Source of the DNA: Heligmosomoides polygyrus polygyrus
Taxonomy: Eukaryota > Nematoda > Chromadorea > Rhabditida > Heligmosomidae
Assembly (NCBI GenBank): GCA_947396885.1
Contig: OX377206.1
Coordinates: 14,879,466-14,943,465, forward strand
DNA: 64,000 nt
Direction of reading: 5' to 3'
How positions within the stretch are numbered: position 1 is the stretch's first letter; each line of letters opens with the position of its first letter. Below are positions 1 to 59,181 of the stretch, one piece after another. Position numbers and translations under genes: made by a program. Below the pieces are notes generated by a model. It was not told where the DNA came from and made no database searches. It saw only the letters and a list, made by a program, of their open reading frames with translations.

Positions 1-2886
1 TGCAATGAATGTGGCCTCTGGAATCATTGATGCTTCGTCTAAAAGCACCGCACTCCATTCCCGTGAGGGGCGACGCCAAAGGCCCTTGCGTATAGTTAAA
101 TTTATGGCGGAGGAAATTGTACAGAGGAACACATTGGGTTTGTAGATCCGAATAAAGGCGCGGGTCAGCTTCTTAATACGTGTGGAGGCATAACGCTCCA
201 GGAATAAAAGGCGCTTGTGCTCCCGCGTAGCGACTCCCCTCTCCTCGCCAGTGAATACGAATTCCCTGAGGGCGTTACGATGTTCCGCAAACTCCTCAAA
301 CATTGCTAGATCATTTTTAGACATAACTTCTCCATGGGTGCTTGGAAGGTTCTCCATGAGGGTAGCCATGTTAAAGGGTTCATTATGAGCGGCGTCCTGC
401 GAGAGTAGCTCGCTGACATAGCGCACAGGACGTATTCTGTCCGAGTTAAGCTCTCCTATTTTTGCGCATATTACATCTAACGCGCTGTTTTGAACCGCGG
501 CTACCAGCACGGTTTGACCCCTTTTTACCACTTCTTCGGCCATGACTGCCGTGCATAAAGACTTGCCGGCCCCGTATGCGCTGTCAATGATTAGGACAGG
601 GCTCTGCCGATTGAACCAGTTTACGGCATTGACTTGGTCTGCGTTGAGCTCTACGTCGTTACCTGAGACGTTGACAGTTATGGAGGTGCGCTCTTCTACC
701 TGCTGGGCCAATATATCAGCGTCTCCTGCCAGTACTGCGCGAGTCGCCAGCCATGACGTCGTGTCCGGCTCGAAGGTGCTAGCCATTCGGCAGTTTTCTA
801 GCATCGCCAACACAGGATTGGCGCGCTCTTCGACGCTGCTGAGTGAAGTCCCGACCGCCATACGACGGTGTGGTGTGCTCAACATGTACGACCGAAACCT
901 GGTGGTGTCCTTGAGAAGGAGTTCCGCAGTGACCCCGACTCTTGTGTCTCCCATGACTAGATGAATTATCCGGGCTTTAAGTATATCAGCCTGGTATGCT
1001 CCTTCAACGAAGCTACCCACCGCCCAACCCGATTTGCTACTAACGGGGATTTGAAACTCCACCTTAGCCGGGAAAGCATTTATATCAAGGAAAGTCCAGA
1101 TTACATTATGTACTCGATGGTCGGACGCTTCTGCGACGCATGCCGCTATGGTCCCACAGGCAGTGCTGTAGAGGGGCTCCAGGAAGTGCATGACCTCCTT
1201 AGGACGAGACTCGAATAATGTGAAATCCGTGAGCTTGGCCTCGATTAAATCCTTATACGACTGCTCTACAAGTCGCATGTGCCCTGGAACGGGAGGGGCG
1301 CTTGGGATGTACTGAATATCGGCTAGGAAAGCGTATATTTCTGCTGAGTTGTCCTTAGGCGTACACGCGAAGCGCATGTAGTCAATCTGTCGTGGTCTAA
1401 ATAAGGCTACGATAAAGGAGTTATCGATGACTTGTTCAAACTCCTTAGGATCGCGAAACCGATTTTTGTTTGCGGTGACCAAGTAACGGTGACCTTGCAT
1501 GCACAATTTGAATGTGCCGTTTTGCCTGGAAACCACCCTGATGACGAATCCAAGGGTATCCTTAAGTTCGCGATATACAAGGCCGAACTGAGCCACGCGC
1601 CATATGGTGGACTTCCGCGATAAAGTAGCTTCCTCCACGTTTGTGGGGGCTACCAGATAGGAGGTTTGGAACTTTACAGTTACGGCGAGGGAATACACCC
1701 AGACTAGATCACCGATAATAAGGCTACGGAGGTCGACTCCTCTTTTACCAGTACGAATATTGATGCCGAACTGGTCGATCTGGATGGTATGGAGGTCCCA
1801 CCGGTCGGGGAAGGGAAGCTCGATATGAGCTGCTTCTAGTCGTGCCCCGGAACCATACAAGGTTTTGACCCTATATAAGACAGGTAGGATACCCTTGTGG
1901 CGTTTTAACCCTCTTACGTAGGTGTGCTGTTCCTGAAGAGAAGCCTGGTCTACTAGGGGCATAGTTGGCAGCTCCCCTTCGCTCCTCTTTATACTTATAA
2001 TGTTGTCGTAACTATTAAAATGACGAAAGTTTTCAATAGCCCTTGGACCAACCGCTTCCAAAATGGGTACCTCGTGACCCACCGTAGGTAATGGCTCTCC
2101 AGATGGGTGCAGGTGTAAGCCGCTGTACCCCGCAGCTGTTACTTTCTCATAGTTGCGAACATCCAGGTCGGAGTGATAATATTCACATTCCTGAATCTGT
2201 ACCCTGGGCTCGAAGAAGGGAGCCCATGGGTGGGATGAAAACCGCTCAAACTTCACCGAAGGAGCGGTTTGCGGAACCTTATGTTTTAGTTCTCTAGAGG
2301 GGGCAACCACGGTTTTTTCTGCTGGTGGTGCCTCCTCGGGAACTGCTTCTTGGGAAAGAGTTGCTTTCTCGATAAGTGATGCCAGCGTCTCAGCCGCTGA
2401 TTCACTATTTTTGAGTCGTTTCACGGCTGGTTGGCTGAAAGCTCCTGAACTAGACCCGGCAACGTTTTCATATTCGGTTTGGGGCGCTGATTCCTCAGAA
2501 GAGGTAATGAGCTGAGACACTGTTTGTATTGCACTGCCAGGTGGCATTTCTTCAAAAACAGTTTTGTTTGGGGCGGCAGATCCCTCCGAAGAGGTGATGA
2601 GCCTCGGTTTCTGCACTAGTTCTAATTTCACACCTTCCTCGTCAGAGTCGTATGAAATGAAGGTGAGAAACTGCTTCGACTCACCGCCCGCCGAAACGGG
2701 AGCGTTTACCGTTGCCGCCGGCGGTGGTGTCTCCTCCCCATCACCAGCATTTGAGAGCACGACGTCCATCGGTTCTTCATGAACGTTGCCGTCAGAAACT
2801 GGCAGAGGAGGGCGGTCTTCTACTGCTAGGGGCGAGAGTCCCTCAGGTGAGGTAACGCTCTGAGCACTGTGAGAATCACTTGACAT
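1..2886 (-). CDS. Superfamily 1 (UPF1-like) helicase, 3' end outside window
   Basis: An uninterrupted frame of 962 codons runs from the ATG at 2886-2884 off the left edge of the window, so the C-terminal half is not seen. About the first 180 residues are rich in Ser, Glu, Pro and Ala and look disordered. They are followed by a long beta-rich region. The helicase core starts with a Q-motif-like ELNADQVNAV, then motif I SAYGAGKS (Lys about 775), a motif Ia-like VLVAAVQNSALDVI, and motif II VLLDEASM (Asp-Glu about 950-951). This order and the DEAS box are typical of the UPF1/DNA2/NAM7 group of SF1 RNA/DNA helicases. Motifs III-VI would lie beyond the window. The first Gly of Walker A is Ser. The frame is on the same strand as the retrotransposon pol, 280 nt after its stop, and has no break although pol has one. 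It could be an accessory gene of the element or a captured host gene; I favour the first because no LTR is visible between them. Confidence 0.85.
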   Translation of the reverse strand, partial: MSSDSHSAQSVTSPEGLSPLAVEDRPPLPVSDGNVHEEPMDVVLSNAGDGEETPPPAATVNAPVSAGGESKQFLTFISYDSDEEGVKLELVQKPRLITSSEGSAAPNKTVFEEMPPGSAIQTVSQLITSSEESAPQTEYENVAGSSSGAFSQPAVKRLKNSESAAETLASLIEKATLSQEAVPEEAPPAEKTVVAPSRELKHKVPQTAPSVKFERFSSHPWAPFFEPRVQIQECEYYHSDLDVRNYEKVTAAGYSGLHLHPSGEPLPTVGHEVPILEAVGPRAIENFRHFNSYDNIISIKRSEGELPTMPLVDQASLQEQHTYVRGLKRHKGILPVLYRVKTLYGSGARLEAAHIELPFPDRWDLHTIQIDQFGINIRTGKRGVDLRSLIIGDLVWVYSLAVTVKFQTSYLVAPTNVEEATLSRKSTIWRVAQFGLVYRELKDTLGFVIRVVSRQNGTFKLCMQGHRYLVTANKNRFRDPKEFEQVIDNSFIVALFRPRQIDYMRFACTPKDNSAEIYAFLADIQYIPSAPPVPGHMRLVEQSYKDLIEAKLTDFTLFESRPKEVMHFLEPLYSTACGTIAACVAEASDHRVHNVIWTFLDINAFPAKVEFQIPVSSKSGWAVGSFVEGAYQADILKARIIHLVMGDTRVGVTAELLLKDTTRFRSYMLSTPHRRMAVGTSLSSVEERANPVLAMLENCRMASTFEPDTTSWLATRAVLAGDADILAQQVEERTSITVNVSGNDVELNADQVNAVNWFNRQSPVLIIDSAYGAGKSLCTAVMAEEVVKRGQTVLVAAVQNSALDVICAKIGELNSDRIRPVRYVSELLSQDAAHNEPFNMATLMENLPSTHGEVMSKNDLAMFEEFAEHRNALREFVFTGEERGVATREHKRLLFLERYASTRIKKLTRAFIRIYKPNVFLCTISSAINLTIRKGLWRRPSREWSAVLLDEASMIPEATFIA

Positions 2887-2898
2887 TTTTCTGAAATA
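2887..2898 (-). promoter_or_regulatory. Splice acceptor 4 nt before the helicase ATG
   Basis: On the minus strand TATTTCAG ends at 2891 and is followed by AAAA and the helicase ATG. This matches the nematode 3' splice-site consensus TTTTCAG, used for both cis- and trans-splicing. It suggests that the helicase is translated from its own spliced mRNA and not as part of the pol polyprotein. The splice itself is inferred. Confidence 0.55.
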
Positions 2899-3113
2899 GG
2901 TGAAAGTTTCTTTTTGGAGAGGCTTCATGAAACAAACGACATATTAGCGATCTATGGCGGTAGGCGGAAATGATGAAATTGGAACTTGATATGAAAGGAA
3001 GATGCGTTTAAGTAATAGAGGAACAGATATCGCCGAAAATGGCGCCCGAGGGAAGCCGAGAATAGGAATTGTAGTCGTCGTGCAGCAAATAGAGAATGCG
3101 TCGTGGGCGCGAA

Positions 3114-3166: not shown

Positions 3167-5851
3167 TCATTGACGATTTCGAGGACGGAGATTATAGTGA
3201 TGCGATGGACTCCCTGAGGCTGTATCCGTAGGGGATGCTATAGGTGCTTCCTCCCGTTGGTGGATGTAACCAGGGATATGCTCTTCAGGTAGTGCGTCTA
3301 CGTAATCGTGCTCCTCCGGTACCGAAGGGAGGGTGGATGCTGGACCCGTGAGATCCACGACCTTTTTTATCTGATTTAGGTGAACACGACGGGGCTGGGA
3401 CTGCGGCGACGTTATGCTCACAATCACCGCGTATGGATGGTCGACCTTCAGAACGCGAAATTGACCAATCCAGGGGAAGCATAACTTCCGTGCGAGCCCC
3501 GATTTGCTGGTATAATTGCGGAAAAACACCCGATCACCTTCGCAGATTGTAGAGGGGCGAGCTTTCTGGTCGTACACGCGCTTCATAGACGCCTTATATG
3601 TTCTGGCGTGCTCTGCTGCTTGCTGCCACGCCAGTTGTAAAGCCGATACTAGTTGCGCTTTATAATCGTCCGTTTCCGAGGGACCAGGGATTTGAGGTCG
3701 GGCTTCGGGCAATAGTATGCGATCTATGGTAAAAACAGGATCTCTACCAAACATTAAAAAGTATGGTGATTCACCGGTGGCTTCATTTATGGAGGTGTTG
3801 TAGCAAAATGCTACGCAGGGTATAAATAAATCCCAATCCTCCTGTTTTATATTGATAAATTTGGAGAGAATAGCTTGAAAAGTGCTGAAAGTTCTCTCCG
3901 TAGCGCCGTTTCCCATGGAATGATACGGAGTTGCAAAGCGGTGTTTGATGTGCAAAAGGTTGCAGAACTCCTGGTAAAAATGCGAGGTAAAACTTGAAGC
4001 CTGATCGGAGACTAATTCAGTCATAGTGCCATATTTCAAGACGCATTCCGTCAGAAGTGCGTGGGCGATCGTATTAGCCCTCGCGTCGGGTAAGGGAACG
4101 GAGATTACGTACCGGGTGAACCAACAAACAATATTTAAAATGTATTTATTGCCGCGCTCCGTAGTTTTGAGTGGTCCGCATAAGTCCAGTCCTACTTTGG
4201 CGAACACTGCTTCGCTGTGCACGGGAATGAGGCGTTCGCGGAAATTTGGCTTCGGATTGCGGCGCATTTGACAGGTGAGACAGGAGTCACACCACTTTCG
4301 GATGTCACTGTGCACTGAATGCCAGTAGTATTTACGCAGGATTTTTGCAAGGGTCTTTTTCCATCCCATATGACCGCCGGAAAGAGCGCTGTTGTGATGA
4401 GCATCGAAAATCAGATTCTGCAGGTGCTTGGGGACTAATAAAACGGTGTGCGCGTTATTCTCCTCTTTTAGGAAATAGTGGAGACAATTGTCATTTTTAA
4501 TAATGCACCTAGGCGCCATTTTTGCAGCCTGAGTTTTAATCGGTTCTGGTGTATCTATGGGTAATTCTGAATCGGTTATAATACTTCGGAGACACTGCAG
4601 CAGGTTGTCCCTTTTCTGCTCATCAGCAAAGCTAATAAGGTCAGGGCTTCCGCTTACGTATGTGTTGAGTGAATACACTATGTGGGGCTCATCCGCCTCG
4701 AAAGCCATGGGTAGGCTGAGAGGGAACTCGATGATATCTCGTAGTTCCTTTTCAGGAGGAGAAACACTATCCTGGCTCTCGTATGCTCTAGAGAGTGCGT
4801 CGGCGACCGTGTTTTTTGAGCCTTTAATATGAATTACCTTAATATTATAGCTCTGCAATTCGATGAGCCAACGCGCTAAATTATCGTGGGTCTTGCTTTT
4901 GTTAAGAAGAAACGTCAATGGCTTATGATCGCTATGCAGTGTTACTTGCGCCATGCAAATATAAGGTTTAAACTGTCTAAGGGCGTAGATAATCGCTCCC
5001 AACTCGATTTGAACTGCGGGCCATCGGCGCTCAGTCTCAGTCAATGTTCTACTACAGTAAGCGACGGCATAAAACTGTTTTGAACCGACCTCGCTTTCCT
5101 GCATTAGAGCTCCAGCTTGAGCGACGCTGCTTGCATCGGTAAAGATGTGAAACGGCTTGTCGTAGTTCGGGTAGCCAAGAATAGGCTTCCTTAATAGTGC
5201 GTCTCTCAACTCCTGAAATGCAGCTTCTTGCGCTTCTGTCCACTGGAATTTTGTTTCTTTACGGGTCATTCTAGTTAGGGGTTCTGCTATGTTAGCGAAG
5301 TTGGGAATAAATTTGCGGAAAAAACCTACCATTCCGAGAAAACGCTTTATTTCTTTAGTATTACTAGGTCTAGGGAATTCCCGTACTGATTTCGTATTGG
5401 CTTCGGCTGGTGAGTAGCTGTCTTTACTGATGACATGACCCAGAAAAGTGATTTGCTGTCTTGCAAAAACACACTTTTTAGGGGAAGCTTTTAGGTTAAA
5501 CTGCCGTAGTCGCATAAGAACTTTTTCAATAGACTGAAGGTGACTGCTGAAATCTTTGTTGTATATTAAAATATCGTCAATATACGTGAGGACGTTACCC
5601 TCTAGACCACCAAGGACCTTGGCCATTATGCGAGCAAAGTAGCTACCCGCGGATTTTAAACCAAAGGGGAGATGTGTCATTTGGTAGATTTTATTTTCCG
5701 TGATAACTCCACATTTGTAGCTACTTTCTTCGTCTAGGGGAAGCTGAAGATATCCACTAGCGAGGTCTAGTGTCGTGTAGAATCTATTGCCACCTATTTT
5801 TTCTAGGACGTCATCTATGCGTGGAATAGGGTACGGGTCCGGCAGGGTTTC
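3167..5851 (-). CDS. Ty3/gypsy Pol, C-terminal part: RT, RNase H, integrase
   Basis: The frame is open from 5851 to the stop at 3167-3169; the first ATG is at 5680. Upstream of that ATG it already encodes RT fingers/palm sequence (PYPIPRIDD, then a TTLDL catalytic motif). Counting from the 5680 ATG, RT has YIDD at 34-37, RNase H has FTDAS (Asp 182), Glu 226, HSDHKP (Asp 251) and Asp 294, and integrase has an HHCC zinc finger (about 428-470) and a D,D-35-E core (Asp 499, Asp 559, Glu 595). A GPY/F-like stretch (FPWIGQFRVLKVDHPYAVIV) and a tail ending HYNLRPR follow. RT-RH-IN order identifies Metaviridae (Ty3/gypsy). The frame is displaced by one nucleotide from the upstream gag-env-protease frame, so this copy is probably dead unless the shift is programmed. 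Confidence 0.93.
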   Translation of the reverse strand, partial: ETLPDPYPIPRIDDVLEKIGGNRFYTTLDLASGYLQLPLDEESSYKCGVITENKIYQMTHLPFGLKSAGSYFARIMAKVLGGLEGNVLTYIDDILIYNKDFSSHLQSIEKVLMRLRQFNLKASPKKCVFARQQITFLGHVISKDSYSPAEANTKSVREFPRPSNTKEIKRFLGMVGFFRKFIPNFANIAEPLTRMTRKETKFQWTEAQEAAFQELRDALLRKPILGYPNYDKPFHIFTDASSVAQAGALMQESEVGSKQFYAVAYCSRTLTETERRWPAVQIELGAIIYALRQFKPYICMAQVTLHSDHKPLTFLLNKSKTHDNLARWLIELQSYNIKVIHIKGSKNTVADALSRAYESQDSVSPPEKELRDIIEFPLSLPMAFEADEPHIVYSLNTYVSGSPDLISFADEQKRDNLLQCLRSIITDSELPIDTPEPIKTQAAKMAPRCIIKNDNCLHYFLKEENNAHTVLLVPKHLQNLIFDAHHNSALSGGHMGWKKTLAKILRKYYWHSVHSDIRKWCDSCLTCQMRRNPKPNFRERLIPVHSEAVFAKVGLDLCGPLKTTERGNKYILNIVCWFTRYVISVPLPDARANTIAHALLTECVLKYGTMTELVSDQASSFTSHFYQEFCNLLHIKHRFATPYHSMGNGATERTFSTFQAILSKFINIKQEDWDLFIPCVAFCYNTSINEATGESPYFLMFGRDPVFTIDRILLPEARPQIPGPSETDDYKAQLVSALQLAWQQAAEHARTYKASMKRVYDQKARPSTICEGDRVFFRNYTSKSGLARKLCFPWIGQFRVLKVDHPYAVIVSITSPQSQPRRVHLNQIKKVVDLTGPASTLPSVPEEHDYVDALPEEHIPGYIHQREEAPIASPTDTASGSPSHHYNLRPRNRQ

Positions 5852-5856
5852 AGGTC
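5847..5856 (-). other. Frameshift inside RT
   Basis: The polyprotein frame meets TGA at 5852-5850, just where conserved RT sequence continues in a frame displaced by one nucleotide (open from 5851). A one-base insertion is the simplest explanation. A programmed +1 shift cannot be excluded, but the site lies in the middle of the RT domain, which is unusual for recoding. Confidence 0.75.
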
Positions 5857-8800
5857 ACTTCATTAATTGGGCGTCTCATATCTAAACAAACTCTGAGTGA
5901 GTTGTCCTTCTTCCGAACTACGACCAAATTATGAACCCAGTGGGTGTGCGATTCCTTCATAACACCTGCTTTAAGGAGCATATTTATGTGTTTTTGAATT
6001 TCCTCGCGATATTTGGCGGGGACACGGTAAGGACGAACCTTACTAGGGGGGTCGTTAGTGGTATAGATATGTACCTTGCCAGCGGTGCAACTGCCGATAT
6101 CGTATTGGTGACGCGAAAATACATCGGGATATTCATCGAGAAGCGCGCGTAGCTGACTGCGTTGCTCATTATTGAGGTCGCAATTATCCAGGTTGACTAC
6201 GTAGGTTGGGTCTGTTTCATTCATTTCAGTGACGCAAGCTACGGGAGTATGCGCCGGTAGCGACCCTGCACTTCTACCAGTGGCTTTGTCCTCACGGACC
6301 TCCGACGCGTTCGCAATGCGAGAGCCCGCGTATAAAGTTTGCGGCTGGTTAGTCGGGTTACTCACCAGCAATCGTGGATTGGATGAATTGATTATTGCGG
6401 GAGCTACAATGAGGTCCCTCTGAGATAATTGTGCTGACTGCGAAACCAAGACTAAATCTTTGTCAGGGCTTACATTTTGCACAACACACGAGACGATTTG
6501 CTCCGAGTTAGGAGGAATTTGTAACGTGTCGCTAACGCGCACGGGAAAGTCATCGTCCCTTGAGTAGTTAGAGGAGGAATATATTTGTCCTAGAGGCAGC
6601 GTTACAGAGCCGAAAGAAACCGTTTTCGCCTTAAAGTCCATAATCATTTTCGGTAGTAATGAAAGTACGTCATTTCCTATTATTACTTCATAAGCGGAGT
6701 TGATATTAGGAACACATAGACCTTTTGTAAAGTGAACGACAGGAGTCAACTCAATGTTTGCAATTTTCATTCTTACTACTTTAGATCCGGCCATAGGAAC
6801 TTGGGTGCCAGCCATACCTACTGCTTGTAGAGAAATAGGAGGATCGAGATGGAAAATACCGAGAGCTGAGCAGAGATCCTGGGCTGCTAACGTGATACTG
6901 GAGCCGGTGTCAACTAAAGCTGACACGCTAACTCCGTTGACGGTAATGCGGATATGAGCAGACATAGAGTGATCGGCAAGAGAGAGCGTGTAAACACGTG
7001 GGAATGAGGACCGTGGCTGGAGTTCCATAGATTCCTGGGGTGGGGTACTGTATCCCGTTTGCGATTGGTCGGCGCGTTGCAGGCCACGCCTCCTTGGCCT
7101 GCCTAAGTTAGCCACAAGTTGAAAAAGGGCACCCGGGCTTTGAAAAGAGGCATAAAGGATGATCAGCCGCAATAAAATGTTAAGAGTCACAAAAGAACAA
7201 CATGCAATGACCCAGGGTTTATAAAGGAGTGATGCGACATATGAGAATGAATTGAAAGGGGAAATAAGTGAAGAAAAACCGTCAGGGGTTGAGTAGGCGT
7301 TATTCTGCGTAGTAGCAGCAATGTGCGCCTGAAGAGCCATTTCGTTGCCTTCGAATGCTGACCAAAGTTCCGTAAACTGCTGCTCCGGTACGAATTCGCT
7401 AATGTTAGTGATTACAAGGTTATGAAAGAGAGTAAGGGGTGGACGAAGTTCACTGGGAGGGCGATTAAAGGAATTATGGAGTACGGTAACTCTATCCCGT
7501 GGGACAGATTCATAAACGCCGGTCAACGGGAAGAATTTTGTCACGGTATTGTTAAAGGCGAATTCAAAGAAATTATCGTTAGAACATGGAATTGGAGCCG
7601 CCTCATGTGTGATAATATTAGTTAAAGGGTCGATAAAGGTATTCCAGCGAGATTTGTCCGGAAGAAATATTGAAATAGATGGAAGAGAAAAACAAGAAGA
7701 ATTAAACGTGGTGAGTGCGTACATGGACGGTGAAAGGCTTGCACAGGCCTTTGTGCGCACGATATTACCACCAAGATATTTTGCTTCAATATCGGTGCGT
7801 TGTAGAATATTACGCATGGCCAAAGTTGGATTTGCAGAAATGGAAGAGACCAGAGACGCGCTTAAGGAATTTACGGACTTGCAGAGGGCGGCAATGGCAT
7901 GGTGAAACGAGGCGCCTAAAGAAAGCTGCATGTTATCTTCGACAGCTAAGAGCTGCGCGGCTAACTGGTTTGTGGTTGCAAGTCCCACCTTCTGCCTCAC
8001 TGAGACGCCCGCTTGCCGTTTGGGACGAGGATACGGAAAAGATTCAATAGCATAACCTTGATCGGTAGGAATAAGAGGGTGACCACAATCGGAAACTGGC
8101 GGAGATGAGAGTGCGAACGATAGAGCAAATTCTTTAGAATCACTGAGCCACACCCTGTCGGCGAGCGTACCCTTCATCGAACTAACGTAAACATACTGGC
8201 AAGTCTCCTGCGAGTCGGGCGTCCATATGACCGCAGCTCCAGAGGCCATCGAACATTGCCCGTCCTTGTATAAGCATCCATTCAAGGGTCCGATGGAACT
8301 TTCCATTGATGTTGAGCCGTGGTAGGCGTATACCGTTGCCTGGAAAACAACGCAATTAGATACCGACGTAGTATAATCAGAGCAGCAATGGAAAGGAGCC
8401 GATGGCCAATTAATTTCCAATGTATTCAACGTTTTTAAGACGGTTCCAACCGCAATAAGGTCGCCATGCGCACATGTTCTATGGGATACCATGTGTTTGC
8501 AAGTGTCTGCGGAGACCGTTTCCTCCTGCGTAGTAATTTTCTGCGTGCGGGCGCCGAAAAAGTTTACAGAAAATATGGCTGTTTGCGTGACTATACGACA
8601 GACATGTGCTGGGCTCTTATACCGAATCGTATTTGGGCGGTAGACTTTCACTTTAAGAGGAGCTGCTGCCGCAGTCCAGGACGGAAGAATTCCTGTGCAG
8701 TTAATGTCAGAGGGTACTTTCCAATAGCTTACTGGAGCTTTATTAGAGCATAGAAGGGGTGGAGAAATTTGCGCACTGGAAACCTGAGAAAGAACCGTTA

Positions 8801-10229
8801 AAGCTAACATGCAAATATAGGGCCAACTAGAGGATGAGGAAGGGGGCGACCGACTACGTGACGGACGTTCCTCTTCCTCCTCAGCGTGAATGTTTAGGTT
8901 ACGGGTTGCGAACGCTAAGTCCGCTAACGCGTTATTTCTTTCAATTAAGGCGGCTATGTGAGCATCTTTCTGCTCGTTAGTGAGCGGCTCTTGATGAACA
9001 ATGGGCGTACTGTTACCATATGATTCGAGTGCCAAAACGTTCGAAGTAGTACGGTTATTGCTAGTCCTCGGATTCGTTTCTAATCTGCGCTCTCGCTGGG
9101 GGATCGCGTTGCGCGCATCGCCGTACTGATTATTGCGCAACTGTGGATTTCTGGCTTGGCTAAATGGCGCTGCGTTAGGGCGCCAGCTGTTGCTACGATA
9201 AAATGGCCTTGGAGGAGCTAAATTGGCAGGGGGGAGGGTATAGCGGCAAAATGTCTGAATGTGTCCCATTCTGCCGCATCGGAAACATGTTACGTCAGAA
9301 TTGGGGGCACGTTCATTTACTCGACGACTGAAACGAGAATAAGAATTAGAATTATTATTGCTAAGTGAAAAACTATTACCAAAGCCACCGCGCCTTTGAT
9401 TAGATCTGGAAGTTCTACCGGCGTCGACTCTTGAGGTGCTAATGACATTAACTGGTGGTAAATGAGGTTGAGAACCTGGAAAAATACTCATGCTATTAGC
9501 CGCATCCGCGAGAAGCGACTCGTACGTAATGGCTTTTATTACTGCCTCATCAAAGGTGGCAGGGTTTGCCGCCTTCACATGGAAACGCAGGCTGGGTTTT
9601 AAGCGATCCACGAACTCGTCCAACAATCTTTCGTTTTGGGCAAGCCTGGTTTGTCCCCGAGTTACCTTCTTTACAATATGCTTGAGTCTCTCAGCAAAAG
9701 CACGCGCGCCCTCCGTTTGACTTTGCCTGCAATCGCATAGCTGCTGGCGAGCTAAACTCCGAAAATGTGGAGATTCAAAATGACTACGCATGCGTTCTAC
9801 AATGCTGTCGAAATCGTTCTTGCTTTCCTCCGACATCTCGTCCACTAGATCGCGAGCTTCGCCTTCCAGATACCCCACCAGGGTGTTGGTCTTGAGCTGG
9901 TCCGGTAATGGCGGGTTGACCATTCTTACGGCATCTTCGAAACTGCGGAACCAGGTTTCGAAATCGCGACCATCCGCTCCGGAAAATGGTTTCAAGGTTT
10001 TTGGCGCGAGCTGCCCGAAGGTCAGGACGCTAGGAAACGCTGCTACAGCGTCGCCTTGTATGGGCAACATCTCACTCTCACTTTTACACTCCAAAACTCG
10101 CTCCTTTTTAGCTGAAGGTGAACGTACCTCGTCGATAGTGGGAAGCTTAGGGTCGTTGGGTGATCGCTGCGAAGGGGTTGACCTGGAACGCTTAATGGTA
10201 AAGGCGCGAGAGACGATGGACGTCTGCAA
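5850..10229 (-). CDS. Gag-Env-protease-RT(N) polyprotein of LTR retrotransposon
   Basis: This is one frame of 1,459 codons. Gag spans about 80-245 (WFRSFEDAV region), with a CCHC knuckle at 315-328. A hydrophobic segment at 469-486 (MLALTVLSQVSSAQ from Met 474) looks like a signal peptide. Residues 487-1003 form a Cys-rich ectodomain with several N-glycosylation sequons, a G..VIW.P....C.YV motif near 664-680 and a furin-type RPKR at 735-738. A transmembrane segment lies at 1006-1027 with basic residues after it. The aspartic protease has DTGSS at 1107-1111. The frame ends inside the N-terminal part of RT at a TGA (5852-5850). The annotated start is a TTG; the first in-frame ATG is at 10070, yet the 53 codons before it look protein-like, so the true start may come from splicing. 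Envelope between Gag and protease is a non-retroviral gene order. I could not assign the glycoprotein family firmly; its layout recalls mononegavirus-like (borna/nyami/chu) fusion proteins. Confidence 0.88.
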   Translation of the reverse strand: MQTSIVSRAFTIKRSRSTPSQRSPNDPKLPTIDEVRSPSAKKERVLECKSESEMLPIQGDAVAAFPSVLTFGQLAPKTLKPFSGADGRDFETWFRSFEDAVRMVNPPLPDQLKTNTLVGYLEGEARDLVDEMSEESKNDFDSIVERMRSHFESPHFRSLARQQLCDCRQSQTEGARAFAERLKHIVKKVTRGQTRLAQNERLLDEFVDRLKPSLRFHVKAANPATFDEAVIKAITYESLLADAANSMSIFPGSQPHLPPVNVISTSRVDAGRTSRSNQRRGGFGNSFSLSNNNSNSYSRFSRRVNERAPNSDVTCFRCGRMGHIQTFCRYTLPPANLAPPRPFYRSNSWRPNAAPFSQARNPQLRNNQYGDARNAIPQRERRLETNPRTSNNRTTSNVLALESYGNSTPIVHQEPLTNEQKDAHIAALIERNNALADLAFATRNLNIHAEEEEERPSRSRSPPSSSSSWPYICMLALTVLSQVSSAQISPPLLCSNKAPVSYWKVPSDINCTGILPSWTAAAAPLKVKVYRPNTIRYKSPAHVCRIVTQTAIFSVNFFGARTQKITTQEETVSADTCKHMVSHRTCAHGDLIAVGTVLKTLNTLEINWPSAPFHCCSDYTTSVSNCVVFQATVYAYHGSTSMESSIGPLNGCLYKDGQCSMASGAAVIWTPDSQETCQYVYVSSMKGTLADRVWLSDSKEFALSFALSSPPVSDCGHPLIPTDQGYAIESFPYPRPKRQAGVSVRQKVGLATTNQLAAQLLAVEDNMQLSLGASFHHAIAALCKSVNSLSASLVSSISANPTLAMRNILQRTDIEAKYLGGNIVRTKACASLSPSMYALTTFNSSCFSLPSISIFLPDKSRWNTFIDPLTNIITHEAAPIPCSNDNFFEFAFNNTVTKFFPLTGVYESVPRDRVTVLHNSFNRPPSELRPPLTLFHNLVITNISEFVPEQQFTELWSAFEGNEMALQAHIAATTQNNAYSTPDGFSSLISPFNSFSYVASLLYKPWVIACCSFVTLNILLRLIILYASFQSPGALFQLVANLGRPRRRGLQRADQSQTGYSTPPQESMELQPRSSFPRVYTLSLADHSMSAHIRITVNGVSVSALVDTGSSITLAAQDLCSALGIFHLDPPISLQAVGMAGTQVPMAGSKVVRMKIANIELTPVVHFTKGLCVPNINSAYEVIIGNDVLSLLPKMIMDFKAKTVSFGSVTLPLGQIYSSSNYSRDDDFPVRVSDTLQIPPNSEQIVSCVVQNVSPDKDLVLVSQSAQLSQRDLIVAPAIINSSNPRLLVSNPTNQPQTLYAGSRIANASEVREDKATGRSAGSLPAHTPVACVTEMNETDPTYVVNLDNCDLNNEQRSQLRALLDEYPDVFSRHQYDIGSCTAGKVHIYTTNDPPSKVRPYRVPAKYREEIQKHINMLLKAGVMKESHTHWVHNLVVVRKKDNSLRVCLDMRRPINEVT

Positions 10230-11460: not shown

Positions 11461-11478
11461 CCGCACTCGCTGCTACCA
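11461..11478 (-). promoter_or_regulatory. Putative primer binding site (initiator tRNA-Met)
   Basis: The minus strand reads TGGTAGCAGCGAGTGCGG. The first 9 nt are the exact complement of the CTGCTACCA 3' end of eukaryotic initiator tRNA-Met, a common primer for LTR elements. It lies immediately downstream of the proposed 5' LTR. Beyond the ninth base I cannot verify the match without the worm's own tRNA sequence. Confidence 0.5.
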
Positions 11479-11479
11479 G

Positions 11480-11928
11480 TAATAATCTTGGTTATCCAGC
11501 CTCTGGTCATGACCCGAAATCAATTCATCTCGCATATTTATCTGCGATAATCCACAAAGCACGGAACGACAAGCCGGAACATGACTCGGCACAAGAGAAA
11601 ACATGTCGACAATACATAACGGGAGATCACTGGGCACCGGAGTGGGGACGAATGCCGGCGTGGTCGGCGGAAGGAGCCGAAGCACCGCGTTGAAGGGCTG
11701 GCCGGGTCCCTGGGTGCAGTCGCGCGTCCCTCCACCGTCCGGGTGGCAGTCCTCGCGAGTCCTTTGTCCTCGCTTATATAGGTCCGTCCTCCTCAAGTCC
11801 GTGCCTGAAACAAGGAAGGGCAAGGGGCCGCGACGTTTCGAAAGATACGGCCAGCAAAGAGAGAGGCAACACGGGGGTAAAATGTCAAAACGGGACTCAC
11901 CACACCGATTCCTCCTTCGTCCCTTACA
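11480..11928 (-). mobile_element. Putative 5' LTR
   Basis: The segment starts TGTAAGGGACG and ends ATTATTAC, giving short inverted ends (GTAA/TTAC), directly followed by the primer binding site. A TATATAAG box lies on the minus strand near 11,773-11,780, at a suitable place for a U3 promoter. The length of about 449 bp is normal for a gypsy LTR. The partner 3' LTR would lie left of the window, so the limits cannot be confirmed by comparison. Confidence 0.4.
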
Positions 11929-16889: not shown

Positions 16890-17113
16890 TTATAATAGCA
16901 ATGTACTCTATATTCCTTTAAAATTTCGAGGTTAGTAAATCAATAAAGGTCTTCGAATTGCACTACTAGCAAAACAGTAGAATTGCAGCTGGGTTTACCT
17001 GTTATCCATATAAATGCAGCTGTTTGGCGGTTTGCAAAGCGGATAAACGGTCACTGCTGCAGGACGAAAACAAAAGCGTTTATTATGGCCACTTTCGTTC
17101 CACACATTGCTTT
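16890..17113 (+). repeat. Dispersed repeat (partner at 48.73-48.95 kb)
   Basis: Aligned by eye, this stretch and 48,730-48,950 share AATGTACTCTATATTCC-like, AGCAAAACAGTAGAA, CCTGTTATCCA, GGCGGTTTGCAAAGCGGA and AAAGCGTTTATTATGG blocks in the same order and orientation. At both loci it follows, at some distance, the unknown coding segment, so both may belong to one larger element. Confidence 0.55.
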
Positions 17114-17750
17114 AGGCTGCCGCTTTGGTTTTCGGTCTCGGAACATCACGATCTCCAACATTAGGGGATGACGTTGTTTCTCCGCTGGTGTTCCTACCGC
17201 CCTGGTTACCTCAGGGTGTTGACTGTGACCGTCGAGGTCATAGCGATGCTCGATAGTTGACATGGCTTGCAGAATACACATGGAAAGCATAGTATAGGTG
17301 GAATATCACTTCCGTCTGTTTCGCAGTTACCTGCCGATCGCATAGGTGATGTACTCGCGACAAAACCTGCCGTAGTAGCGACGAGTTTTCCGCGGAAATT
17401 ACCTAGTTTTCCATACCGTATGGCGGCTGTCGTTCCAGGAACGCGCGAACGCTCATTGACCACCGTACACTCCGGGTTCGACCAGTGAACCAACGACAGA
17501 TAAAATGTGACAAAGATCTGGCCAAAATCGTTGTGGTCCTTACACATCACATGCGGCACATAGAAATGATATAACGTCACGTTTGTGTGCTGTGAAGGGT
17601 GCTTTCAACAATCTGGTGTTGTTCACATGCTTCGCAATGGAATCAAAGTTTTCTGCAGCTAGCTACAACCGTCCTAGCACGGATGCCTTGCCTCGTCGCG
17701 GTGTTCACGTATTCAGAAATAGTTTTGGCACGTCGTCATTATAACAGTAT
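17114..17750. repeat. Foldback element, left arm, outer part
   Basis: Read in reverse complement, this matches 25,011-25,645 nearly base for base. It is interrupted at 17,750/17,751 by a CR1-like retrotransposon and resumes at 22,721. The outer end begins AGGCTGCCGCTTTGG. Short frames in it (for example 17,206-17,580 minus) are mirrored in the right arm and are not recognised. Confidence 0.75.
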
Positions 17751-17774
17751 ATTTATTTATTTATTTATTTATTG

Positions 17775-18939: not shown

Positions 18940-21788
18940 TCAAACTGTATCAATAAGGCCAAGAATCTCGAGAACGTCATGCTTTCCAAGTTTCTTCTTG
19001 AAGGTCAGTCCGTCTTGCGCACTGAGAACGTCTATCGGTAACCGGTTCAACCATCGCGCTACTCTGACGAAAAGAAAGTTATACATTTGATTAAAATTCC
19101 TTCTGAAAATTTTTTTATACTGCAGCTGGAACCCACCTGTTCTGGAGCTAGTTGGTATAAAGACCCAGTATCTGCTTGCAGGAAGACAAACTTCTTTGCG
19201 GAGTATACGAAAGCAGAAAACTAGGTCCGCCACAACCCTTCTGTAGTGTAATGTCTTAAGCTGGAGTCTTCTTAAGCGCTCTTTGTAACACGGTATTACC
19301 TCACCAGTATCTACCTGCCTATCTCTATAAGCTCTAAGAAATGCAAGCCTTGTAAAAGTTTCTTGAACTTTTTCGAGAAGCAGAATGTGCTTCTTTAGAG
19401 TGGGGTTCCAAACAGGCGAGCCGAATTCTAAGTGAGGCAAAACGTAAGTTTTATACAGGCGCGTCAAAATTCTAAGATCACTAACATGAATGTTACGAAA
19501 AATGCAGAAGAGGGCGGAGTATGCACTATCAACGGCGTTTTTGATGTGCTCAGAGAAGTTCAATCTAGAGTCAACTAGAATACCAAGATCTTTGGCTTCT
19601 GTACAGTGACTCAGATTTATGCCACTCACCGTATACACAGGAGCTTCTGTATTACCAAGATGCAGCATATGACATTTTTTCGGATTAATTACTAAATTCA
19701 AAGGAGTAACATAGGCGATCAGTCTATCTAGTGAAGCCTGTAACGATGTGGTGACAGTAAGTGAATCTTCATGGTTATAGATCCCGTATAGCTTTATATC
19801 GTCAGCGTACAACTGTATTTTAATATGGTGGGAAGACTTCACCGATTCCGCTAAATCTATTACGTATATCAGGAACAGCAATGGTGACAACACACCTCCT
19901 TGTGGCACTCCACTGCAACAGTGATGCCTACCAGAATACCCATCACCTACCCTGACTGTCATGTGCCTTCCAGCAAGGTATGAGACCAGCCAGTTTAGCA
20001 AATTACCACGAACTCCTAGGGAAATAATTTTATCGATTAGTATAGAGTGGTTTACTCTATCAAACGCTTTGGAGAGATCCACGTAGATAATATCCACAGA
20101 TTTACCCTGGTTCAGTGCTGTCTTCCAGTCAAACACGCTGTCAACTAAATTAGTAATTGTAGAATACCCTGGTAGGAAACCATGCTGCGAGTGAGTGTCA
20201 CCATACTGTCTTTGTAGTAATGAAAGCAGTTTGTTCCTGATCATTTTTTCCATAATCTTTATGGGAGTAGGAGTTATACTTATAGGTCGATACTCCGATA
20301 CTAGTTGTGTTCCGGGAACCTTAGGGATGCCAGTCACTAGTGCTTCCTTCCACAGATCAGGTACCTCACCTAGCATGAGAGAGGTGGTGAAAATGGCTGC
20401 CAGAGGTTTGGAAAGTGACTTGGCACATTTTTGAAAAACAACAGCGGGGATGCCATCGTAAGGTTCAGTTGAGGAGGGTTTAATTTGCCTAAGCAGTTTG
20501 TGTACAGTAGAAGGGTGGAAGTAAAGTTCCTGGCATTGCCGAGGGTGCCCGAATATATTGGGTGGAAAACAAGGTGGATATGTATTAACAGAAAAAATTT
20601 TGGAAAAGTGTTCAGCGAGAACACATGCCTTGGAAGAGTTGCTCGAGTACAACCGCCCATTTTCATCCCTGAGAACAGAGCAATTACTTTTGGACTTAAT
20701 TCGGCTACGAATGAAGGCATGAAGCTGCTTCATAGACCCAGAAGAAGCTAGATGACGTTCTTTGTAAGCCCAGAATTTTTGTACGTGATAATCTATGTCG
20801 CGACAAACTTTCTTGTATAAGGCGTTGGTCAAGGGATTTGGAAGGGAATAGAAGAGTCGTTCCTTTTGGCTAAGAAGATTCTGGATATGGACGGGAAATC
20901 GTTTACTCGTAGGGTACTTCACAGCAAAAGGGACGGATCCAGCGAGCACTCTGTAAACAACATTGCAAAATCTGCGATACATGTCTGACGCTGAAGAGTA
21001 ACCAGAGAAAACTTCCATCCAGTTGATGTTGTTGAACTGAGTGTCAAGGTTTGTATAATCTACCCTAGTAAAATCAGGCAAAGGGATAAGTCCAGATTTC
21101 GTATCATTGAGCCTAAATCCAAAATGAATAATTGTATGATCGGAGGTAGAGAGCGGTGGAAGGTAATCAAATATCTTAACAAGAGGGGTGGATGTAAGAA
21201 TAATGTCGAGGATATTAGCACCTCGTGTTGAGTGGTCCACTACCTGGTGCAAGCTAAGATTCTTGAACAGGGTAAAAAACTGTTCCGAGGCGGAATTAAT
21301 AGGTTTAGAAGAGCACCAGTCGATCTTAAGGTTGAAATCTCCAAGTAACACCATTTCTTTACCTGAGGATAGGGCCGTAATGAATTCAATTAAATCGTCG
21401 TCGTCCTTCTTGTGCGAGTTAGGAGGCCGATAAACGACAACGAACCTTACAGAGGAGCTAGTGTTGTATTGATGAAGTTCAACACATAGGACATCCGCTT
21501 TCCCTAAGAAGTTGTGCTTGACAACAGGCAAAGAAATAGTATCACTAAATACACAGCACACTCCTCCACCCCTCCGTCCCTTCCGATCCATGCGACATAT
21601 GTTGTACGGTAGACCTCCAACGATCTCAGAATCTTTAACTCGACAGGAGAGCCATGTTTCCGTGACAAAAACAATGTCTGGTTTATTGGTAGCAAGAAAG
21701 TATTGAAAGTGGAGCAGTTTATTAGCAAGGCTTCGAGCGTTGAGCAAGAAACAAGAAAGAGATCCCCGTGAACCGTGCAATTTTATGC
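18940..21788 (-). CDS. CR1-like ORF2: endonuclease-reverse transcriptase
   Basis: The listed frame (946 codons) starts at a TTG at 21,780; there is no ATG before the endonuclease domain. An APE-type endonuclease spans residues 10-220 with LNARSL (Asn 14), TETW (Glu 41), LGDFN (Asp 148, Asn 150) and SDH (213-215). RT spans about 484-735 with EYRPIS, SKAFDRVNH, GVPQGGVLSPLLF and LYADD (658-661). A C-terminal domain with paired aromatic and basic blocks follows (LRRLQLKTLHYRRVVADLVF). This is the CR1/L2/Jockey-group layout. The frame appears intact to the stop at 18,940. Its reading frame is -1 relative to ORF1 and can be entered directly by a -1 slip at the heptamer 21,795-21,789. Confidence 0.92.
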
Positions 21789-22460
21789 GTTTTCCGATGA
21801 CCTAACAGGAAGTTCCGATATATGTTTGAGCTCACCCCTATAAACGACCCATTCCCTCTGAGGCTTACCCTTATTACGCTCTCTGGCTGCCTGTCTCAGC
21901 TCATACTCCCTTTTCCGTTCATCTCCTGTCATGCTTCTTCGCACAAAGACATGACTGAAGCCAGGAGCCGCGCGCAATAGACGAGCATTAGCCAACGCGG
22001 TTCTCCAATGAGATCGCGTAGGCAATACAATTTTGACTAGTCTAGGGCGAGAGGAGTCCGCTCTTCCCATCCGGAAAACCTCCACAGGTTCGCAATCAAC
22101 CTTCAAAGCGTCGAGTAGATTGCTGACCTTCTCCCTGAGTTCTGCACGCTGAAGCGACGGCGGAAGATGCTCGCCATTGGGCTCACTAACCCCTGACACA
22201 ACCAGACTCCGTGAGCGCTTCTCCTCCTCAATGCCATCAGCAACTGCTGAGGATGCCTTATCAATCGCAACAGTAAGCATCTGTGCCAAGATGGGATCAG
22301 TGTTCCGTGCGGCGATGCTCTTCAGCAGTTCACATAGGCTCAGCCTTTGGAGATTAGACACCTCCACATCGACGGTTCCTGAAATCGGTGACTGTTGGGC
22401 AGTAGAAACCGACGGAAGACTATTATTGTTACTAGTAAATCTACGAGTGGTTCGAGCCAT
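21783..22460 (-). CDS. CR1-like ORF1 protein
   Basis: 225 codons start at an ATG (22,460). An N-terminal Ser/Thr-rich tail is followed by a helical region (about 35-80), a beta strand SLVVSGVSEP, a helix with LRDALKVDCEPVEVFRMG-like content, and RLVKIVLP with a basic helix (DERKREYELRQAARERN). This resembles the RRM-like/CTD ORF1 proteins of CR1 and L1-type elements, which bind the element RNA and act as chaperones. The stop TAA lies 2 nt before the first listed ORF2 codon. Confidence 0.8.
   Translation of the reverse strand: MARTTRRFTSNNNSLPSVSTAQQSPISGTVDVEVSNLQRLSLCELLKSIAARNTDPILAQMLTVAIDKASSAVADGIEEEKRSRSLVVSGVSEPNGEHLPPSLQRAELREKVSNLLDALKVDCEPVEVFRMGRADSSRPRLVKIVLPTRSHWRTALANARLLRAAPGFSHVFVRRSMTGDERKREYELRQAARERNKGKPQREWVVYRGELKHISELPVRSSENA
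21789..21795 (-). promoter_or_regulatory. Candidate -1 frameshift site, ORF1/ORF2
   Basis: The minus strand reads TCG GAA AAC GCA TAA in the ORF1 frame. A -1 slip after AAC enters the ORF2 frame exactly (CGC ATA AAA TTG). The heptamer GGAAAAC is one base off the canonical G GGA AAC that occupies the same place in the second CR1-like copy (40,424-40,430). Confidence 0.5.
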
Positions 22461-24479: not shown

Positions 24480-25645
24480 TCAGATGGCAAGTTTGGTATT
24501 CATATGATACAACTTAGTATAAATGATAACGGCGAATGATTTAATTCCACCAAGCCATTCACCCACCCCCAGGTAATGCTTCTTTTCTATTCTTTTTCTA
24601 TCCAAATAACCGTGGATAAAGTCATTCATGACCGCCCTCCCCCGTCAACTGCCGCTCTTGCTTAACAGGTGTTAACCACGCAGATTAAATAGCCAACTCA
24701 CCTAATTTCCATCGAGTTGGCCTAGTACGAGAGCGCCTCTGCTCCGTGAACGTCGAGAACGTCGATGAGGCCCGGTGCTGCTGATGCCTTCCCTCGTCTA
24801 ATTCTGTTGCGCCGATATAGAAGCCGTTGTTTCTTTTTCTAGTCATTCTACGCTTTTCCTCTAGACTTTGGTCGCGAGCAATTGGATGCCAAGAAGGGAA
24901 ATTCAAAGAGCAGAGTCTAAGCAAGGTTTCCCACAAGGTCTCCCCCACCACTGGTTTCACTGAAAGCAGTCAAAGGGTGCTAGCCTCTATGGTGTTTAAA
25001 ATGACGCTATACTGTTATAATGACGACGTGCCAAAACTATTTCTGAATACGTGAACACCGCGACGAGGCAAGGCATCCGTGCTAGGACGGTTGTAGCTAG
25101 CTGAAGAAAACTTTGATTTCATTGCGAAGCATGTGAACAACACCAGATTGTTGAAAGCACCCTTCAAAGCACACAAACGTGACGTTATATCATTTCTATG
25201 TGCCGCATGTGATGTGTAAGGACCACAACGATTTTGGCCAGATCTTTGTCACATTTTATCTGACGTTGGTTCACTGATCGAGCCCGGAGTGTACGGTGGT
25301 CAATGAGCGCTCGCGCGTTCCTGGAACGACAGCCTCCATACGGTATGGAAAACTAGGTAATTTCCGCGGAAAACTCGTCGCTACTACGGCAGGTTTTGTC
25401 GCGAGTACAGCACCTATGCGATCGCCAGGTAACTGCGAACGAGACGGAAGTGATATTCCACCTATACTATGCTTTCCATGTGTATTCTGCAAGCCATGTC
25501 AACTATCGAGCATCGCTATGACCTCGACGCTCACAGTCAACACCCTGAGGTAACCGGGGCGGAAGGAACACCAGCGGAGAAACAACGTCATCCCCTAATG
25601 TTGAAGATCGTGAGGTTCCGAGACCGAAAACCAAAGCGGCAGCCT
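24480..25645. repeat. Foldback element, right arm (uninterrupted)
   Basis: This arm of about 1,165 bp is the inverted partner of 17,114-17,750 plus 22,721-23,250. Differences seen by eye are scattered single bases. It ends AAGCGGCAGCCT. It provides the empty site for the CR1-like insertion. It runs straight into the unknown coding segment at 25,646, whereas the left arm does not, so the duplicated unit ends here. Confidence 0.75.
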
Positions 25646-25837
25646 ACCTTCATCTCTCAACAAAAGTGCAGAAGTAGGGCTATTGGATATTCCAAATCCA
25701 ACCATCATTCAACAACTGCTGTACAGATTCATTTAGATACTTTACAAGCTAAATTGCTAGATCTACCACTACATTTCAAACAAGAATCTCAAACAGTAAG
25801 GACAACACTCATATGTTTCAGTACGACCTACAGTTGA
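25646..25837 (+). pseudogene. Decayed copy B of the unknown coding segment
   Basis: LLDIPN, QQLLYRFI and HYISNK-like remains match the 47.3 kb copy but are split by stops. The frame 25,469-25,837 crosses from the foldback arm into this segment, which suggests that the arm and the segment were once one transcription unit. Confidence 0.4.

Positions 25838-34065: not shown

Positions 34066-35122
<1,057 letters not shown>

Positions 35123-59057: not shown

Positions 59058-59181
<124 letters not shown>

What the first reader, a model, noticed from the sequence alone, without database searches (positions are those of the whole stretch)
7100..8830. Envelope-like glycoprotein placed between Gag and protease in one reading frame
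Seen: in a single frame, Gag with a CCHC knuckle is followed by a signal peptide, a Cys-rich ectodomain with an RPKR site, a transmembrane helix, then DTGSS protease and RT. Known: retroviruses and env-bearing gypsy or BEL elements place env after pol. Inference: this element acquired a glycoprotein at an unusual position and needs polyprotein cleavage or internal initiation (Met 474 starts the signal peptide) to make it.
Basis: partly seen in the sequence, partly recalled or inferred. Interest (0 to 1): 0.88.

Follow-up and report, generated by a model that had tools for sequence, protein, structure and literature searches.

The report
Nematode retroelement with envelope inside Gag-Pol
A recently inserted, retrovirus-like element in a nematode genome carries its envelope-type membrane protein in the middle of its main gene, between the capsid and protease parts instead of at the end, and also carries an extra helicase gene; relatives in other nematodes show the same gene order.

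Summary
On the minus strand one 1464-codon frame (10244-5850) encodes Gag with a CCHC knuckle, a coiled linker, a signal peptide, a Cys-rich ectodomain with RPKR, a transmembrane helix, DTGSS protease and the start of RT. The ectodomain is predicted to have a class III fusion-glycoprotein fold. The order is not a local accident. The window's genome holds at least 76 env matches, 9 in an identical 1464-codon frame, with pN/pS 0.27 over 18 copies. Gene models of strongylid and Caenorhabditis nematodes show gag-env or env-pro in one protein; weak traces occur in Meloidogyne and Steinernema. A divergent family keeps gag-env-pro-RT-IN in one 2399-codon frame. The element is a 13.2-kb LTR provirus with identical LTRs, a 5-bp target duplication and a UPF1-like SF1 helicase ORF inside the LTRs. 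A stop inside RT, at the same residue in three other species' models, separates ORF1 from ORF2. Best explanation: a Gag-Env-Pro polyprotein with an internal signal sequence. Internal initiation at Met 474 is disfavoured. There is no RNA or protein evidence.

The parts
11479..11928 (-). 5' LTR, 450 bp (TGTAAGG...ATTATTAC); the 3' LTR lies left of the window at C60:14878195-14878644
   Evidence: 452-bp 100% match between window 11477-11928 and locus L031; of trims by 0-3 bases, trimming two gives the longest junction repeat, 5 bp TGTAT
11461..11478 (-). primer binding site candidate TGGTAGCAGCGAGTGCGG directly after the trimmed 5' LTR
   Evidence: sequence; the tRNA was not identified
8814..10070 (-). 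Gag (capsid-like part, CCHC knuckle) from the first in-frame ATG
   Evidence: PF03732 1e-7, CCHC sub-threshold; ATG positions
8910..8969 (-). conserved linker KDAHIAALIERNNALADLAF between Gag knuckle and Env, coiled-coil-like
   Evidence: alignment A1; geminin matches of the profile at E 0.22-0.45, weak
8769..8813 (-). internal signal peptide (CMLALTVLSQVSSA)
   Evidence: hydrophobic 11-mer, mean KD 1.91; 19 of 20 models that cover this part reach 1.79 or more, P0031 has 0.65
7224..8768 (-). Env ectodomain, predicted class III fusion glycoprotein
   Evidence: AF2 model, Foldseek, VIA-align, Pfam PF24664/PF00974 sub-threshold
8016..8027 (-). furin-like site RPKR
   Evidence: both outer Arg (R249, R252 of A1) invariant in its 20 rows
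7155..7211 (-). transmembrane helix of Env
   Evidence: hydropathy; helix 505-541 in model
6660..6953 (-). aspartic protease (DTGSS)
   Evidence: PF13650 3.4e-8, PF13975 1.2e-7
5850..5852 (-). TGA ending ORF1 inside RT after RVCLDMRRPINEVT; ORF2 continues in the +1 frame
   Evidence: same end residue in P0009, P0010, P0011; TGA in all 19 own-genome loci, of 30 searched, where the preceding motif was found
3167..5851 (-). ORF2: rest of RT, RNase H, integrase
   Evidence: PF00078, PF17917/17919, PF17921, PF00665 on 3167-5680
2891..2896 (-). TTTCAG, 3' splice-site consensus four bases before the helicase ATG
   Evidence: function inferred
1..2886 (-). UPF1-like SF1 helicase ORF (first part); a further 262 codons and the stop lie left of the window, before the 3' LTR
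   Evidence: PF13086 5.5e-7; C-terminal part read in L031

Best explanation
This is a recently inserted Ty3-type LTR retroelement of a nematode whose lineage carries a predicted class III viral fusion glycoprotein in frame between Gag and protease. Most likely it is translated as one Gag-Env-Pro polyprotein. Gag stays in the cytosol; the internal signal peptide takes the ribosome to the ER; the ectodomain enters the lumen and is cut by signal peptidase (from Gag) and a furin-like enzyme (RPKR); the transmembrane helix leaves protease and RT on the cytosolic side, where the protease can release them. In this clade a conserved stop inside RT limits how much RT-RNase H-integrase is made, probably through +1 recoding at ACC-UGA. 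The 3' helicase ORF is probably expressed from its own spliced or trans-spliced message. Shown: gene order, frame, LTRs, copies, conservation, helicase inside the LTRs. Predicted: the fold. Inferred: topology, cleavages, recoding, splicing and any infectious role.
Against: No transcript or protein data. A fixed 1:1:1 Gag:Env:Pro ratio is unusual for a retroelement (recalled). TTTCTCAG and TTTCCAG lie inside the signal peptide (8784, 8776), so a spliced env message is possible. A C. japonica model (P0098) goes from Gag to protease without Env, by loss, intron or model error; 10 of 24 proteins with 60 or more residues before the protease show no env match. In an older subfamily (L026, L027) the frame after the RT stop is -1, not +1; no RNA structure was found at the site (z 0.53); L034 has its frame break between protease and RT, and L033 has an extra one there. 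Most of the 19 loci with the stop are near-identical recent copies, so not independent. The AF2 model has pTM 0.40 and low-confidence stretches; Foldseek TM-scores of the listed rows are only 0.13-0.41 and overall rmsd is large.
Confidence: 0.62

Rival explanations
1. Env is made from a spliced subgenomic RNA that joins a leader or gag exon to an acceptor in or near the signal peptide, as in insect endogenous retroviruses, and the in-frame fusion to Gag is incidental.
For: Insect iERVs splice env from a short upstream exon, an AU dinucleotide or within gag (PMC12992720, passages). Acceptor-like TTTCTCAG/TTTCCAG at 8784 and 8776. Cer1 uses a multi-exon message for CERV (PMC10309623, passages).
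Against: The only donors matching the strict patterns in the scanned 12.5 kb are at 11900 (inside the 5' LTR), 6365 and 2684, none in the leader after the LTR or in gag. A spliced env would still read on into protease, since no stop separates them in the window or in L032.
Confidence: 0.2
2. Internal translation initiation at Met 474 makes a free Env(-Pro) protein.
For: In the window a Met starts the signal peptide.
Against: Poor context, six earlier in-frame AUGs, and no Met within 40 residues before mature Env in 5 of 20 models.
Confidence: 0.05
3. The glycoprotein no longer mediates entry: it is kept as a membrane anchor or assembly module that tethers Gag and protease-RT to membranes of the germ line.
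For: The fusion to both Gag and Pro would anchor them; pN/pS 0.27 shows constraint but not which function. Copy number can grow by intracellular retrotransposition alone (recalled).
Against: The furin-like Arg pair and the cysteine pattern of a fusion protein are kept across the aligned family.
Confidence: 0.12
4. Chimaeric assembly, or a late insertion of a foreign glycoprotein into one copy.
For: The order is unusual.
Against: 76 matches on several contigs of the same genome, the same open frame in 9, gag-env or env-pro in models of many species, and gag-env-pro in divergent families.
Confidence: 0.01

Closest known systems
Insect endogenous retroviruses (ZAM/gypsy errantivirus group; PMC12992720, passages read)
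   Same: Ty3-type pol plus a viral fusion glycoprotein with signal peptide, furin site and TM
   Different: [quoted passage not shown] its place after pol is recalled. Here Env is in frame between Gag and protease and class III-like
Anakin BEL-Pao elements with chuvirus glycoprotein (PMC7642597, passages read)
   Same: Retroelement that captured a glycoprotein of a chuvirus, the Monjiviricetes type (class name recalled)
   Different: Mosquito Pao family; the passages that I saw describe no in-frame gag-env-pro
Nematode Tas (Ascaris) and Atlas virus (hookworm) BEL-type elements (PMC9094657, passages read)
   Same: Nematode env-bearing retroelements; Tas env has weak similarity to herpesvirus gB according to PMC9094657
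   Different: Belpaoviridae; Tas and Cer-7 have env downstream of the polyprotein (PMC7642597 passage, which words the donors differently); Atlas Env is class II
Cer1 of C. elegans (PMC10309623, passages read)
   Same: Nematode Ty3-type Gag-Pol element
   Different: [quoted passage not shown]
TelKA LTR elements of bdelloid rotifers (PMC5408684, passages read)
   Same: LTR retroelement with a fusion glycoprotein from a negative-strand RNA virus
   Different: Paramyxovirus F-like (class I), discussed there as ORF3 downstream of pol
TRAS and Jockey LINEs with SF1 helicase domains (PMC5563155, abstract read)
   Same: Retroelement carrying an SF1 RNA helicase
   Different: Non-LTR; helicase of plus-strand RNA virus type inside ORF1 or ORF2; here UPF1-like and a separate 3' ORF of an LTR element
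Alphavirus and flavivirus structural polyproteins (recalled, no call)
   Same: Works like: cytosolic capsid, internal signal sequence, glycoprotein cut out by signal peptidase and furin
   Different: Not a member: unrelated genome and replication

Membership tests
Ty3/gypsy (Metaviridae) LTR retroelement | Pol order protease-RT-RNase H-integrase | tested here: met
   Pfam order on P0003/P0004
Ty3/gypsy (Metaviridae) LTR retroelement | Retrotransposon-type capsid and CCHC Gag | tested here: met
   PF03732 1e-7 above cut-off; PF19259 Ty3_capsid 1.9e-4 and CCHC 0.0075 below theirs; C..C....H....C pattern in the sequence
Ty3/gypsy (Metaviridae) LTR retroelement | LTR pair, target duplication, PBS and PPT | tested here: met
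   the primer tRNA was not identified
Ty3/gypsy (Metaviridae) LTR retroelement | Pol groups with reference Ty3 elements in a tree | tested here: inconclusive
   Quick tree of 49 hand-picked rows places it in a 41-row group (support 100) against 8 distant rows, with long-branch warnings; no curated reference set was used
Errantivirus / env-bearing gypsy | env as a separate ORF after pol | tested here: not met
   Env lies between Gag and protease in one frame; the ORF after pol is a helicase
Class III viral fusion glycoprotein | gB/G-type fold | tested here: met
   [not shown]
Class III viral fusion glycoprotein | Sequence profile above curated cut-off | tested here: inconclusive
   PF24664 0.0053 in the window and 2.4e-5 to 0.0098 in 6 of 7 relatives, all below cut-off; the database's own precomputed Pfam gives PF24664 to 7 of 23 hits; PF00974 0.002 in P0027, below cut-off
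Class III viral fusion glycoprotein | Membrane fusion activity | not testable with these tools
   needs an experiment
UPF1-like SF1 helicase | AAA_11/AAA_12 core with Walker motifs | tested here: met
   PF13086 above cut-off in the window part; PF13087 down to 3.1e-35 in relatives; UPF1 best PDB match 1.4e-21 for P0033

The most novel reading that the evidence does not exclude
A widespread nematode retroelement lineage makes its capsid, class III fusion envelope and protease as one membrane-threaded polyprotein, in the manner of alphavirus structural proteins, and carries its own UPF1-like helicase inside the LTRs, perhaps against RNA silencing or for RNA handling. This would be a genome plan that I have not seen described for retroviruses or env-bearing retrotransposons.
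Probability: 0.5. Interest if true: 0.88.

Novelty: new variant of a known kind. Interest (0 to 1): 0.8.

Why it matters
The usual order gag-pol-env, with env from a spliced message, is treated as general for retroviruses and env-bearing retroelements. A nematode lineage, present in important parasites and in Caenorhabditis, keeps a fusion-type glycoprotein inside Gag-Pol across divergent families. It shows another way for a retroelement to use a captured glycoprotein and puts three questions within reach of existing nematode material: how Gag:Env:Pol ratios are set, whether signal peptidase can split Gag from Env, and what a helicase does for an LTR element. The identical LTRs and near-identical copies suggest recent activity, so RNA evidence should be obtainable.

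Tried and rejected
Late insertion or artefact: rejected by the copies and relatives. Met 474 initiation: disfavoured. The RT stop as a simple lesion: unlikely, since three other species' models end at the same residue (these are gene models, P0009 labelled partial) and TGA is present in 19 of 19 loci where the preceding motif was found; 11 of 30 loci did not match the motif and are not counted. By a frame count from the env end, 13 of the first 21 loci have their first stop exactly there. A structured frameshift stimulator: none found. Helicase as a neighbouring host gene: rejected, it lies between the LTRs and follows 17 of the 21 env rows of 93% identity or more on the same strand within 9 kb (16 at 3.97-4.42 kb, one at 8.95 kb); 4 of 21 have none in the rows given. 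For that count I gave the script 26 of 76 env rows and 28 of 63 helicase rows; 19 of the 26 had one. In L032 no helicase matched, but only about 1 kb after its ORF was fetched. LTR search inside the window alone failed because the 3' LTR lies outside. Helicase fold: the model was too poor to use (pLDDT 38.8) and was not searched. No Rfam family at gathering threshold. Viral contig scans for env and pol gave no relatives. Own-genome searches with the Gag piece and the Pro/RT piece, meant to look for env-less copies, never answered, so env-less copies in this genome remain untested. An earlier count said 16 of 30 loci for the RT stop; the count is 19 of 30.
Full report
OBSERVATION. The finding is correct. 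The frame 10244-5850 on the minus strand is open for 1464 codons (shuffles reach at most 215) and runs Gag, CCHC, coiled linker, signal peptide, Cys-rich ectodomain with RPKR, transmembrane helix, DTGSS protease and the first part of RT. ORF2 (5851-3167) holds the rest of RT, RNase H and integrase.

THE WHOLE ELEMENT. Within the window no LTR pair was found. The window's own genome, reached late, solved this: 7 kb around the left edge (L031) contains a copy of window 11477-11928 at 100% over 452 bp. Of trims by 0 to 3 bases, two gives the longest direct repeat at the outer junctions, 5 bp TGTAT, hence 450-bp LTRs and an element of 13,199 bp. A PBS-like TGGTAGCAGCGAGTGCGG follows the 5' LTR and a purine tract GAAAAGGGGGAGA precedes the 3' LTR. 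Identical LTRs mean a recent insertion (inference). After integrase comes a third ORF, from an ATG at 2886, that runs off the window and ends 262 codons later, before the 3' LTR. It is a UPF1-like SF1 helicase (PF13086; PF13087 in relatives; UPF1 is the best PDB match of relative P0033). TTTCAG stands four bases before its ATG, which fits cis or SL trans-splicing (inference).

COPIES. The env piece has 76 matches in the 656-Mb genome, a lower bound; 9 rows have a 1464-codon open frame, and the first 21 rows are 93-100% identical. Among 18 full-length env copies pN/pS is 0.27 over all pairs (pairs are not independent), mean pS 0.034. Against the window copy alone the ratios range from 0.19 to 1.25, the highest resting on five differences. 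The helicase has 63 matches. Of the 21 env rows, 17 have a helicase downstream on the same strand within 9 kb, 16 of them at 3.97-4.42 kb; two of five rows at 44-48% also do (which took 26 of 76 env and 28 of 63 helicase rows).

RELATIVES. The env search gave 23 proteins among 8000 scored candidates; those whose source names a species are strongylid or Caenorhabditis nematodes. Of 19 relatives' models that reach the start of Env, 14 also carry a CCHC knuckle upstream. Among 24 proteins with at least 60 residues before the protease, 11 have strong env matches, three weak ones (P0073, P0050 Meloidogyne enterolobii, P0070 Steinernema; 11.3-17.6 bits against at most 3.5 in 480 shuffles) and 10 none, some of these being distant rows or models that start late. 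Three divergent copies in the same genome were examined with pieces. L032 (38% in env) has gag, env, pro, RT, RNase H and IN in a single 2399-codon frame; no helicase matched in the roughly 1 kb fetched after it. L033 (48%) has gag-env-pro in one 1243-codon ORF, a further frame break between protease and RT, then ORF2 opening in another frame just where the first RT piece ends, and a helicase downstream. L034 (39%) has gag-env-pro in a 1474-codon ORF, RT unsplit but in another frame after protease, and weak helicase matches downstream. A quick, hand-picked pol tree puts the window in a 41-row group (support 100) next to H. contortus P0040 (98). The env tree separates Caenorhabditis from two strongylid groups, as the pol tree does, but only the window and P0028 are in both trees, so the agreement is loose. 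I take it that env has long stayed with this pol (inference). Against this, one C. japonica model (P0098) has Gag, protease, RT and helicase but no Env.

HELICASE IN RELATIVES. Helicase sequence is fused to element parts in gene models of A. caninum (P0029), A. ceylanicum (P0130) and Teladorsagia (P0075) and of C. japonica (P0061, P0098: AAA_12). In H. contortus, V3C99_012519 (env-pro) and V3C99_012517 (helicase) lie on contigs of the same listed length, with tags two apart.

HOW IT IS EXPRESSED. Env has no stop of its own and, in five of 20 models, no Met nearby, so its source must be the Gag-fused protein or a spliced RNA. The internal signal peptide (19 of 20 models), the conserved furin-like Arg pair and the TM helix fit a polyprotein threaded through the ER membrane, as in alphaviruses (recalled). 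No donor consensus was found in the leader or gag, but only strict patterns were scanned. In the clade of the window ORF1 ends within RT at RVCLDMRRPINEVT. Of 29 proteins with this RT motif, 4 (window, H. contortus, A. ceylanicum, N. brasiliensis) end exactly there and 25 read on. In the genome TGA follows in all 19 loci, of 30 searched, where the motif was found. Downstream coding continues in the +1 frame in the window family, but in the -1 frame in L026 and L027, so +1 recoding is a proposal, not a result.

WHAT IS KNOWN. Nine searches of the held library showed me no retroelement with a glycoprotein between Gag and protease; I saw listings, not the papers, for most hits, and the library lacks most subscription papers and all preprints. 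I read passages of PMC12992720 (spliced env-F), PMC7642597 (Anakin; env downstream of the polyprotein in Roo, Tas, Cer-7), PMC9094657 (Atlas, Tas), PMC10309623 (Cer1), PMC5408684 (TelKA, ORF3), PMC7264820 (plant additional ORFs, mostly between pol and 3' LTR), PMC12440569 (Troyka, no envelope), PMC3118150 and PMC13195028 (nothing on env position in what I saw), and the abstract of PMC5563155 (helicases in LINEs).

VERDICT. This is a new variant of a known kind, with a layout that a retrovirologist would find surprising. The mechanism remains unproved without RNA and protein data.

Noticed in passing
window 34068-35118: A perfect (AC)n array of 525.5 copies, 1051 bp at 100%; it explains the long ORFs in several frames there.
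   Followed up: no
window 18940-22460 and 37561-40056, minus strand: Two non-LTR retrotransposon copies with endonuclease-RT ORFs of 946 and 831 codons; the first is preceded by a 225-aa ORF without Pfam match at E 0.1.
   Followed up: no
window 17113-17751 and 25008-25646: A 639-bp inverted repeat pair at 97%.
   Followed up: no
window 5850-7034, P0003 residues 163-245: Weak dUTPase-like matches between protease and RT (PF04797 0.016, PF00692 0.048; PF00692 4.7e-4 in P0050), all below cut-off; none in the eight relatives. Perhaps a degenerate dUTPase fold.
   Followed up: partly
window 1-2943, P0005 residues 30 and 146: A repeated short motif such as VTSPEGLSP / ITSSEESAP in the N-terminal part of the helicase, found in 8 of the 12 proteins scanned.
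   Followed up: partly
L034 about 4574-4638: ORF1 (gag-env-pro) and the RT ORF overlap by about 60 bases in different frames, so this family may place a frameshift between protease and RT.
   Followed up: no
window 59063-59181: A GTGC tetranucleotide array of 30 copies at 99%.
   Followed up: no
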